Shown here: piece by piece, positions 2,954 through 55,912 of the stretch
Layout: every line of letters begins with the position of its first letter
Position numbering within the stretch: the first letter of the stretch is position 1
The notes under the pieces: generated by a model
What the model saw: only the letters and a program-made list of their open reading frames with translations
The model's database searches: none
What the model was told of the DNA's origin: nothing
Virus record (IMG/VR): IMGVR_UViG_3300005747_000012
Coordinates: 1-64,000 of that record
DNA length: 64,000 bases
Reading direction: 5' to 3' (one strand)
Origin: a virus
Program-made: the position numbers and the translations under genes

Positions 2954-3109
2954 TTAATCCTCCTTCATAAGCGTGGAATTTTCTTTAGATATTTCACCAA
3001 AATAAACTCTTGCTTCAATTAAAGCGGTTCTCATGTCAAAATTTTTCATCAAATGTTTCAGAATCTTTTCGGTATGCTCTAGTCTGTTTTCTAACTCTTG
3101 TTTTGTCAT
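2954..3109 (-). CDS. Small hypothetical coiled-coil protein
   Basis: 51 aa, MTKQELENRLEHTEKILKHL..., helical with heptad-like Leu/Ile spacing. Excellent AGGAGGATTTG before the ATG and an AGGAGG in its own last codons serving the next gene. Confidence 0.55.
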   Translation of the reverse strand: MTKQELENRLEHTEKILKHLMKNFDMRTALIEARVYFGEISKENSTLMKED

Positions 3110-3162
3110 CAAATCCTCCTACACCAAAAACATTGGGTTTGTGTCGTTTTTATTTTCCAATT

Positions 3163-53208: not shown

Positions 53209-53853
53209 ATGATTAATAAAAATTATAAAAGCGAATATGGATTAATCAATGCTAAAATTGCAGATATTAATGCAGAAAATGCTCCGCTATGGTCTGTTGA
53301 GTATTTGCTTTTAGAAAATAATCCTGCACTTTTTTATTCTCTTGAAAATTACATAAGATTATGTAAAACTGACACAAAAGGCCTTTACAATCAATTTCCC
53401 ATAAGATATCACAATAAAGATGACTACACAAGCCCTGATCAGTTAATTGCATTTGTAGCATTTTTTAAAATGTCTAATTTAAACAGTGAAATCAAAGATA
53501 TCTGGAAATATCTAATCAACCACATTGGAACTTATGATAATTTAACTGCCAAAACTAACTGGTCAAGAATTATGCAACCAGCAGCTTTGGCTTTTGTTGG
53601 GGCGTGTGCCGGAAGTAAATGGGCCAAAATAGCTCTTTCCATATCTTGCGTATATTCTTGTGCTACCAAAAAAAATGAAACATCAGGAAAACTCAAGGCT
53701 TGGGTTATGTTTAAAACCCTTAACATGAAAATTACAGAATTTTTGTGTACTTATTTTATAAAAAAAACACCATTTAAAGATTGGAAGGGAATATTTTTTG
53801 AATATTTTCAAGAAAAAGAGCATCCAATAAGAAAAATATTGGGTAAAAAATAA
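53209..53853 (+). CDS. Hypothetical protein with DUF-like helical repeat
   Basis: 214 aa, helical. YTSPDQLIAFVAFF, then NWSRIMQPAALAFVGACAG and IALSISCVYSC: two hydrophobic stretches, neither clearly a membrane span. Starts 3 bases after the collar gene; stop overlaps the ClpX-like start. No family recognised; could be a late protein such as a lysis or assembly factor. Confidence 0.5.
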   Translation: MINKNYKSEYGLINAKIADINAENAPLWSVEYLLLENNPALFYSLENYIRLCKTDTKGLYNQFPIRYHNKDDYTSPDQLIAFVAFFKMSNLNSEIKDIWKYLINHIGTYDNLTAKTNWSRIMQPAALAFVGACAGSKWAKIALSISCVYSCATKKNETSGKLKAWVMFKTLNMKITEFLCTYFIKKTPFKDWKGIFFEYFQEKEHPIRKILGKK

Positions 53854-54824
53854 TGAGTAAAGAAAAAAAATATATAATAAAAACTCCAGAACAAATAAAA
53901 AATGAGCTGGATGAATATGTTATAGGCCAAGAAAGTGCTAAAAAAAACCTAGCGGTTGCCGCCTATAATCACTTAAAAAGAATAAATGGTTGTGATATAA
54001 GGAAAAATAATCTTTTAATTATAGGTCCTACAGGATGTGGGAAGACATATTTAGTGTCAAATCTTTCCAAGATTCTAAATGTAGATTTTTTAACTGTTGA
54101 CGCTACACAATTCACGGCTTCTGGTTATGAAGGAAGAGATGTTCAGGAAATTGTAATTGAATTAATGAACATATGTGAAGATAGTGAAAAAAGAGCATCA
54201 AAATCTATTGTTTATATAGATGAGGTGGATAAGATAAAAAAGAAGCAATCTGGTGGAAATGCAGATGTAAATGGTGAGGGTGTGCAGCAATCTCTTTTAA
54301 AATTAATAGAGGGTAGCGAAATTCCTTATACATCTCCAAATTCAAGAAATGGAATGCGTGACAAAAAGCTAGATACTAAGAATATTATGTTTATATGCTC
54401 AGGAGCTTTTGTTGATTTAAAAGAGGCAACTACGGAAGGTCTGGTAAAATTTGGTATGATACCAGAGTTTTTAGGAAGATTTTCTTCCGTTGCTGAGATA
54501 CATCAACTAGAATTTGATGATTACAAAAAAATATTAACTGATTCAAAAGATTCTGTTTTAAATTCATTTAAAGAATGGTTTAAAAGTGAGAATGTTAGTT
54601 TGGTTATAAAAGAAAATGCTTTAGATTTAATTGCTAAAAGAGCTGTGGATAGAGGTTTGGGTGCTAGAGGATTGCAAAATATATTGGATGAAATCTTTTT
54701 AGACGCTCAATTTCAACTACCTAGCATGAAAATAAAACCTATTTGTTTTGTTTTAGATGCTGAAGTTATAGAAAAAAACAAACCAAAATGGGTTTATAAA
54801 AATGTTTTAAGTAAAAAACAATAG
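53853..54824 (+). CDS. ClpX-like AAA+ unfoldase lacking zinc domain and IGF loop
   Basis: 323 aa. Walker A GPTGCGKT at 58-65, Walker B IVYIDEVDK near 119-127, Arg-finger IPEFLGRF and sensor-2 GARGLQNIL clearly place it with ClpX. E. coli ClpX is 424 aa: the N-terminal zinc domain is absent and the segment with the ClpP-docking IGF loop is missing (GAF..LKEATTEGLVKFGMIPEF, about 40 residues shorter). The pore loop GYVG reads GYEG. It should unfold or remodel proteins but not dock ClpP in the usual way. Follows fibre genes; a tRNA begins at the next base. Confidence 0.85.
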   Translation: MSKEKKYIIKTPEQIKNELDEYVIGQESAKKNLAVAAYNHLKRINGCDIRKNNLLIIGPTGCGKTYLVSNLSKILNVDFLTVDATQFTASGYEGRDVQEIVIELMNICEDSEKRASKSIVYIDEVDKIKKKQSGGNADVNGEGVQQSLLKLIEGSEIPYTSPNSRNGMRDKKLDTKNIMFICSGAFVDLKEATTEGLVKFGMIPEFLGRFSSVAEIHQLEFDDYKKILTDSKDSVLNSFKEWFKSENVSLVIKENALDLIAKRAVDRGLGARGLQNILDEIFLDAQFQLPSMKIKPICFVLDAEVIEKNKPKWVYKNVLSKKQ

Positions 54825-54906
54825 GCTTGTATGGTGGAATTGGTAGACACAGAGGGCTTCAACCCCTTGGGCTAAGGCCGTGCGGGTTCGAGTCCTGCTG
54901 CAAGCA
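54825..54906 (+). tRNA. Leu-type tRNA with anticodon UCA (reads UGA)
   Basis: 82 nt. Acceptor GCTTGTA/TGCAAGC with A73; D arm GTG...CAC with GGTAGA; anticodon stem GAGGG/CCCTT, loop CTTCAAC, so bases 34-36 are UCA; 13-nt variable arm; T arm GCGGG-TTCGAGT-CCTGC. Class II architecture and A73 fit tRNA-Leu; a Sec tRNA would have a longer acceptor/T stack and G73. CCA is not encoded. It starts one base after the ClpX stop and ends one base before the next gene's stop, leaving no spacer. Expected to decode UGA as a sense codon. Confidence 0.8.
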
Positions 54907-55197
54907 TCATTTATTTTCAAAAATCTGATCCCAAGTCTGGTACTTGTAAGAGGGATTTTTTTTCCATTCTTCTTCTCTAAATAGCACAACTGTTTTATTG
55001 CTAAGTTCAATGCAGTTTCCATCTATAAGCCTGTACATAGTTATACATGGTATCTTTGCCGATACATTTTGCAGCAAATTTTTTGAAGCCTGTCGATCAT
55101 CAGAAAAAACTACAAATTTTTGTTTTTCTTTTAGAATTCCTTTTTCTAATATTGCGTTAATTAAACTATCCATTTTACACACCTTAAAATCATCCAA
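54907..55197 (-). CDS. Hypothetical protein
   Basis: 96 aa (or 88 aa from ATG 55173, which has the better AGGTG site). Alpha-beta pattern (KQKFVVFSDDRQASKNLL, PCITMYRLIDGN, NKTVVLFREEEW). Its stop codon abuts the tRNA 3' end. No family recognised. Confidence 0.55.
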   Translation of the reverse strand: MDDFKVCKMDSLINAILEKGILKEKQKFVVFSDDRQASKNLLQNVSAKIPCITMYRLIDGNCIELSNKTVVLFREEEWKKNPSYKYQTWDQIFENK

Positions 55198-55594
55198 TTA
55201 CATTTTTGACTACTTTAGCTAAAATAGCCCCGTCAACATTTTTTAATTCTTTTTTTATAGCACCAATTGTTTTGCCCATTTCTTTGCTAGGATTTTGTTT
55301 TAGATATTCTTCCACATATTTTTTAGTCTCTTCTTCAGACATCTGTTTCGGCAAAAGCTCTTTAATTAAACCATATTCTTTTTCTAAATCTTCGTATCTG
55401 TCGGTATTCTCAAACATTTTTAAAGTTTTAAATAATTTTTTTGCGTATTTTTCAACAACCTCTAGTTCACCAATTGGTTTTTTAGATTTTTCATTGTTTA
55501 AAAGTTCTGATTTTAATAAAACAAAAACATTAGAAGTAAATTTGTCTCCACTTTTTTTAGCATCAATTATTTTTTTATTTACTAAATCTAACAT
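55190..55594 (-). CDS. YqeY/GatB-C-like protein
   Basis: 134 aa from ATG 55594 (AAAGG upstream; the TTG two codons earlier is less likely). Matches the YqeY family order: helical start with KSGDKFTSNVFVLLKSELLNNE, then DLEKEYGLIKELLPKQMSEEE, MGKTIGAIKKELKNVDGAILAKVVK. YqeY resembles the GatB tail domain that contacts tRNA; its role in bacteria is not settled. Its place next to a tRNA gene may be meaningful. Confidence 0.75.
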   Translation of the reverse strand: MLDLVNKKIIDAKKSGDKFTSNVFVLLKSELLNNEKSKKPIGELEVVEKYAKKLFKTLKMFENTDRYEDLEKEYGLIKELLPKQMSEEETKKYVEEYLKQNPSKEMGKTIGAIKKELKNVDGAILAKVVKNVIG

Positions 55595-55606
55595 ATACAA
55601 ACCTTT

Positions 55607-55912
55607 TCACATAATTAATGGGCAAACTTGTTCGTAATATTCTTCGGTAGTTAAATCAAATTTAATATCTTTTTCTAACGTACCCATAGTTTCCCACCTA
55701 ATTTTTTTTTCAATTTTTCCATTTGGATATTTATAGTAATCAAAAGCAATTTCAAATTTTTCTCTATTATGAATAGGAATATATTTTTGTAAGATTTCAG
55801 AGAAATTGTAGCCCAGAATCTCTTTTAAAGGAATCTCTACAAACAAAGTTTTTACTTTAGTTACGTCAACTTTTTCACCTTCACATGTTGTTAAAAAAGT
55901 TTTGCTATTCAT
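55607..55912 (-). CDS. Hypothetical protein
   Basis: 101 aa; KTLFVEIPLKEILGYNFSEIL, FEIAFDYYKYPNGKIEKK: alpha-beta, hydrophilic. Overlaps the upstream gene by 8 bases. No family recognised. Confidence 0.55.
   Translation of the reverse strand: MNSKTFLTTCEGEKVDVTKVKTLFVEIPLKEILGYNFSEILQKYIPIHNREKFEIAFDYYKYPNGKIEKKIRWETMGTLEKDIKFDLTTEEYYEQVCPLIM

What the first reader, a model, noticed from the sequence alone, without database searches (positions are those of the whole stretch)
54825..54906. Leu-type tRNA with anticodon UCA, reading UGA stop codons
The anticodon loop CTTCAAC puts UCA at 34-36; shifting the stem by one base breaks two pairs. Class II arms and A73 suggest charging with Leu. UGA-decoding suppressor tRNAs are known from phages with altered stop use. 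It has no spacer on either side, which suggests processing from the ClpX mRNA.
Basis: partly seen in the sequence, partly recalled or inferred. Interest (0 to 1): 0.85.

Follow-up and report, generated by a model that had tools for sequence, protein, structure and literature searches.

The report
Phage leucine tRNA reading UGA stop
A phage carries one transfer-RNA gene, a leucine tRNA whose anticodon matches the stop signal UGA; the gene looks intact and is very rare, but the phage's own genes show no sign of using UGA as anything but a stop.

Summary
Bases 54825-54906 (+) encode an intact class II tRNA with anticodon UCA; ARAGORN and Rfam agree, and no other register gives a five-pair stem. 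It is the only tRNA found in the 129-kb phage record. By sequence and Leu determinants it is a tRNA-Leu; its nearest relatives are tRNA-Leu(UAA) genes, so it looks like a Leu(UAA) gene whose anticodon became UCA. It is not tRNA-Sec (ARAGORN's "SeC" label only follows the anticodon) and not Trp.

Decoding UGA as Leu is the likely activity, but altered stop use is not seen. No gene has a credible in-frame UGA, about a fifth of genes end in UGA, and UGA stops are as common as in relatives (60-70% protein identity) that lack the tRNA. It sits in one species-level cluster (four contigs, about 98.7% identical), so conservation says nothing. A Leu-type UCA pattern found no other intact tRNA in IMG/VR or in about 85,000 prokaryote species. 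The gene lies exactly between the clpX stop and the stop of the convergent gene, without encoded CCA. Best reading: a recently acquired orphan Leu opal suppressor causing some UGA readthrough without recoding. Activity is untested.

The parts
54825..54906 (+). Leu-type class II tRNA gene, anticodon UCA (opal)
   Evidence: ARAGORN; Rfam RF00005 51.9 bits; Leu type
54825..54831 (+). acceptor stem, 5' strand
   Evidence: pairs with 54899-54905
54834..54850 (+). D arm (3-bp stem), Leu-type D loop
   Evidence: one difference from E. coli leuZ over this arm
54852..54868 (+). anticodon arm GAGGG-CTTCAAC-CCCTT
54859..54861 (+). anticodon TCA (UCA)
54870..54879 (+). variable arm (GGC-TAAG-GCC)
54882..54898 (+). 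T arm
54899..54905 (+). acceptor stem, 3' strand
   Evidence: G to A in two near-identical contigs keeps pair 6
54906..54906 (+). discriminator base A73; followed by TCA, not CCA
53853..54824 (+). clpX-like ATPase gene directly upstream, stop TAG abutting the tRNA
54907..55197 (-). convergent 96-aa ORF; its TGA stop abuts the tRNA 3' end

Best explanation
This is a phage-borne opal suppressor tRNA. It descends from a bacterial tRNA-Leu(UAA) gene whose anticodon changed to UCA (position 35, A to C). Because bacterial LeuRS, as studied in E. coli, does not need the anticodon, the tRNA should still be charged with leucine by the host enzyme. It is probably cut out of the clpX transcript by RNase P at its 5' end, trimmed at its 3' end, and given CCA by the host. 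In the ribosome it would compete with RF2 at UGA and insert leucine at some of those codons. The phage has not recoded: UGA remains its stop codon, so the effect is partial readthrough that the phage tolerates, possibly useful late in infection because the gene closes a block of late-strand genes. Shown: gene structure, anticodon, Leu type, distribution, absence of recoding. Inferred: charging, processing, UGA decoding, any benefit.
For: Intact cloverleaf and anticodon by two programs and a register scan. All ten Leu tRNAs outscore Tyr, Ser and class I tRNAs in alignment, Leu(UAA) first; nearest matches in phages and in 795 sampled bacterial genomes are Leu(UAA). E. coli Leu determinants A73, A15-U48, G18G19, A20a, and C2-G71 against SerRS, with no need of the anticodon (PMC9976931), match by comparison with E. 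coli leuZ. Only tRNA found in the record. One nearby difference in other contigs keeps the pair. Zero spacing to clpX.
Against: No sign that UGA decoding is used: no in-frame UGA, no depletion of UGA stops, no backup stops. The tRNA is limited to contigs about 98.7% identical, where one change in 82 bases is what neutrality predicts. CCA is not encoded. Computed folding of the bare sequence prefers another structure (-32.1 against -27.2 kcal/mol). The anticodon arm departs from the Leu(UAA) tRNAs compared at pair 31-39 (G-C for A-U) and position 38 (C for A) in the alignment, which may weaken decoding (inference).
Confidence: 0.6

Rival explanations
1. A recently captured tRNA-Leu that lost its sense-codon role by an anticodon mutation and is neutral cargo: it may fold but is poorly charged or cannot compete with RF2, and has no effect on infection.
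For: Confined to one species-level cluster and absent from eleven related records; UGA use unchanged; conservation uninformative; no encoded CCA.
Against: All stems, U33, A37, A73 and the T loop are intact, the one change in other contigs keeps its pair, and the gene is wedged between two genes without loss.
Confidence: 0.25
2. The tRNA works mainly as RNA punctuation: RNase P cutting at its 5' end and tRNA 3' processing define the end of the clpX transcript between convergent gene blocks, and the anticodon is irrelevant.
For: Exact abutment to the clpX stop and to the convergent stop; no terminator-like site at the junction.
Against: Any tRNA or terminator would do; eleven related records lack it. 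Cleavage at the base after UAG would leave no bases after the stop codon.
Confidence: 0.1
3. Genome recoding: the phage reads UGA as Leu in some of its own genes, as recoded phages do with UGA as Trp.
For: Anticodon and Leu type.
Against: Long genes open under the standard code; no credible in-frame UGA against orthologs; 35 of 166 ORFs end in UGA; the only long UGA extension joins a separate gene with its own ribosome-binding site.
Confidence: 0.03
4. tRNA-Sec or an allo-tRNA, as the ARAGORN label suggests.
For: ARAGORN prints tRNA-SeC for anticodon TCA.
Against: 7/5 acceptor and T arms, 3-bp D stem, A73 and Leu sequence, not the longer acceptor or shifted arms of those tRNAs (PMC7609411, and established knowledge).
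Confidence: 0.02

Closest known systems
Phage Sup-TCA (opal suppressor) tRNAs of recoded phages, e.g. Zeta crAss-like phage Lera (PMC12386605)
   Same: Phage-borne tRNA with anticodon UCA.
   Different: Those are reported mostly as Trp type, among many tRNAs, with in-frame UGA in phage genes; here Leu type, a single tRNA and no in-frame UGA.
Phage suppressor tRNAs without matching recoding (noted in Zeta crAss-like phages, PMC12386605)
   Same: Suppressor anticodon but standard stop use.
   Different: There described as apparently inactive where the stop is absent or backed by a near second stop; here UGA stops are common and not backed up more than other stops.
Bacterial tRNA-Leu(UAA) (e.g. 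E. coli leuZ)
   Same: Sequence, class II arms, A73, D-loop and T-loop elements.
   Different: Anticodon UCA instead of UAA; different acceptor stem; anticodon-arm changes; no encoded CCA.
Leu-inserting nonsense suppressors derived from tRNA-Leu in E. coli genetics (own knowledge)
   Same: Anticodon change in a tRNA whose synthetase does not read the anticodon.
   Different: Natural and phage-borne, and opal instead of the commoner amber kind.

Membership tests
tRNA-Leu (bacterial) | class II fold with long variable arm | tested here: met
   arm short but present
tRNA-Leu (bacterial) | discriminator A73 and Leu D-loop/T-loop elements | tested here: met
   A73; D arm differs from E. coli leuZ at one base; determinants from PMC9976931
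tRNA-Leu (bacterial) | sequence nearer to Leu than to other isotypes | tested here: met
   ten of ten Leu tRNAs rank above ten non-Leu
tRNA-Leu (bacterial) | leucylation | not testable with these tools
   needs charging assay
Opal suppressor tRNA | anticodon UCA in a sound anticodon loop | tested here: met
Opal suppressor tRNA | UGA readthrough | not testable with these tools
   needs reporter
Recoded phage (UGA as sense) | in-frame UGA in conserved genes | tested here: not met
Recoded phage (UGA as sense) | UGA avoided as terminator | tested here: not met
   structural 5/50 v 9/106, early 13/42 v 35/130
Recoded phage (UGA as sense) | release factor in the phage genome (found in some) | tested here: not met
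   no PF00472 match
tRNA-Sec | 8-bp acceptor stem, long D stem | tested here: not met
   7-bp acceptor, 3-bp D stem

The most novel reading that the evidence does not exclude
A standard-code phage uses a single Leu opal suppressor tRNA, without recoding itself, as a late tool against translation termination: low-level leucine insertion at UGA codons of host and phage genes (including the UGA of the RF2 frameshift site) that benefits infection.
Probability: 0.15. Interest if true: 0.8.

Novelty: new variant of a known kind. Interest (0 to 1): 0.45.

Why it matters
Phage opal suppressors are usually discussed as partners of genome recoding and as tryptophan tRNAs. A leucine-type opal suppressor as the only tRNA of a phage that keeps UGA as stop would separate having a suppressor from having a changed code, and would be an example of how recoding could begin: the tRNA arrives before any codon is reassigned. 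It also warns that a tRNA call alone ('SeC' or 'Sup') is not evidence of an altered code.

Tried and rejected
Recoding to Leu, Trp or any residue: rejected by open frames and stop use. Avoidance of UGA stops in structural genes: an impression from the window alone (few UGA among long genes) vanished when orthologs were compared. A readthrough fusion of the 101-aa ORF 55607-55912 with the in-frame YqeY gene 55190-55600: TGA is the only stop between them, but YqeY has its own ribosome-binding site, and in relative G002 it follows another gene in another frame. YqeY as a partner of the tRNA: YqeY is in G002, where no tRNA is found. Anticodon CAA by a one-base shift: only 3 pairs, 1 of them Watson-Crick. 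Attachment-site remnant: no Phage_integrase match in the record. Conservation as evidence of function: too little divergence. Donor of the tRNA: the best match in 795 sampled genomes is 85% over 69 bases, a tRNA-Leu(UAA), so neither donor nor host is identified. Other hits of the Leu-UCA pattern were not intact UCA tRNAs: Leu tRNAs with other anticodons, eight-base loops, or sequence that is not a tRNA or is interrupted.

Full report
What is there. ARAGORN finds one tRNA in the 64-kb window, at 54825-54906 (+), anticodon TCA, printed as 'tRNA-SeC' because of that anticodon. Rfam gives a full-length tRNA match at the same bases, 51.9 bits against a cut-off of 29. The cloverleaf has a 7-bp acceptor stem, a 3-bp D stem, a 5-bp anticodon stem, a 3-bp variable arm and a 5-bp T stem, all paired. 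A scan of hairpin registers leaves TCA as the only one with five pairs and U33; the CAA register keeps three pairs. The bare sequence folds better on paper into another structure (-32.1 against -27.2 kcal/mol), a caveat and not a refutation.

Which tRNA. Among 20 tRNAs from E. coli, phages and other bacteria, all ten Leu tRNAs score above Tyr, Ser and class I tRNAs; the nearest are Leu(UAA). Searches of the phage collection and of 795 sampled bacterial genomes also return Leu(UAA) as nearest, at 77-85%. The Leu determinants known from E. coli (A73, not the anticodon; A15-U48, G18G19, A20a; C2-G71 against SerRS; PMC9976931) are present by comparison with E. coli leuZ. One change at position 35 turns UAA into UCA. 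The anticodon arm also differs at 31-39 and 38, which may make it a modest suppressor (inference). A73 is followed by TCA, so CCA must be added.

Context. The window is part of a 129,267-base IMG/VR phage record. It is a contractile-tail phage by its tail sheath and baseplate genes, with a PolIII-alpha (DnaE) type polymerase. ARAGORN finds no other tRNA in the record. The tRNA starts on the base after the TAG of a clpX-like gene and ends on the base before the TGA of the convergent gene. No integrase or release-factor family matches.

Distribution. Three further contigs carry it with at most one difference, a U-G to U-A change in the acceptor stem. Local divergence is 1.3%, so this says nothing about selection. 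Eleven related records show no tRNA by Rfam: G001-G004 share the polymerase at 63-70% identity (G002 also clpX at 64%), and G007-G013 share clpX at 58-64%. Several are fragments. More distant polymerase relatives, Myxococcus phage Mx1 and G014, have large tRNA arrays. A Leu-type UCA pattern has no other intact tRNA hit in IMG/VR and none in a collection of 84,980 prokaryote species. The pattern is strict, so 'none' refers to the usual Leu D arm only.

Does the phage use UGA differently? No sign of it. Long genes are open under the standard code. Code-4 tblastn with proteins of five related contigs finds no credible in-frame UGA; the few crossings are short antisense matches or terminal overruns. 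Of ORFs of 60 aa or more, 35 of 166 end in UGA. Orthologs in structural blocks end in UGA in 5 of 50 here and 9 of 106 in relatives without the tRNA (p=0.77), early genes in 13 of 42 and 35 of 130 (p=0.69). Backup stops after UGA are not enriched. If the tRNA is active, the phage tolerates it.

Mechanism. Most likely: transcription with clpX, RNase P cleavage, 3' trimming and CCA addition by the host, charging by host LeuRS, and occasional Leu insertion at UGA in competition with RF2. Everything after the gene structure is inferred. The main rival is neutral cargo: a captured Leu tRNA with a mutated anticodon. The present data cannot cleanly separate them, because the cluster is too young for conservation to speak.

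Comparison with what is known. Sup-TCA tRNAs in phages are described, mostly Trp type and with recoding, and suppressor tRNAs without matching recoding are noted in Zeta crAss-like phages (PMC12386605). In another survey 11 of 73 phages predicted to use code 4 carried Sup-TCA (PMC11210395). The new points here are the Leu type, the lone status and the standard code. Hence a new variant of a known kind.

Noticed in passing
window 54907-55197 (-) and 54859-54861: Reading the convergent ORF past its TGA stop runs antisense through the tRNA, and the next in-frame TGA is the reverse complement of the anticodon itself; a one-in-three coincidence of frame.
   Followed up: partly
window 55190-55600 (-): A stand-alone YqeY-like (GatB/YqeY tRNA-binding type) protein is encoded next to the tRNA; it is also in relative G002, where no tRNA is found, and distant matches lie in Lak phages.
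   Followed up: partly
record G000 100466-101941 and 101923-104172 (-) (L003, L004): The large terminase gene seems split into two ORFs, the second starting with an intein-like C-terminal motif (GNHNYFANGILTHN before terminase sequence).
   Followed up: no
L037 10001-14626: In relative G002 the DNA polymerase match spans 4626 bases for 1211 residues, about 1 kb more than in the others; possible intein or intron.
   Followed up: no
L022 2579-2666, L032 1043-1128, L018 near 3080-3110: Bacterial contigs with Leu-type tRNAs whose anticodon loop has eight bases (ARAGORN reads a four-base anticodon TCAG in two).
   Followed up: no
L017 near 2840-2930: In a tRNA-rich phage contig, a Leu-type tRNA 5' half breaks off in the anticodon loop; possibly an intron-containing tRNA-Leu.
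   Followed up: no
L144 8346-8420: A contig with a distant clpX relative carries a tRNA with anticodon CTA (called tRNA-Pyl), perhaps an amber suppressor.
   Followed up: no
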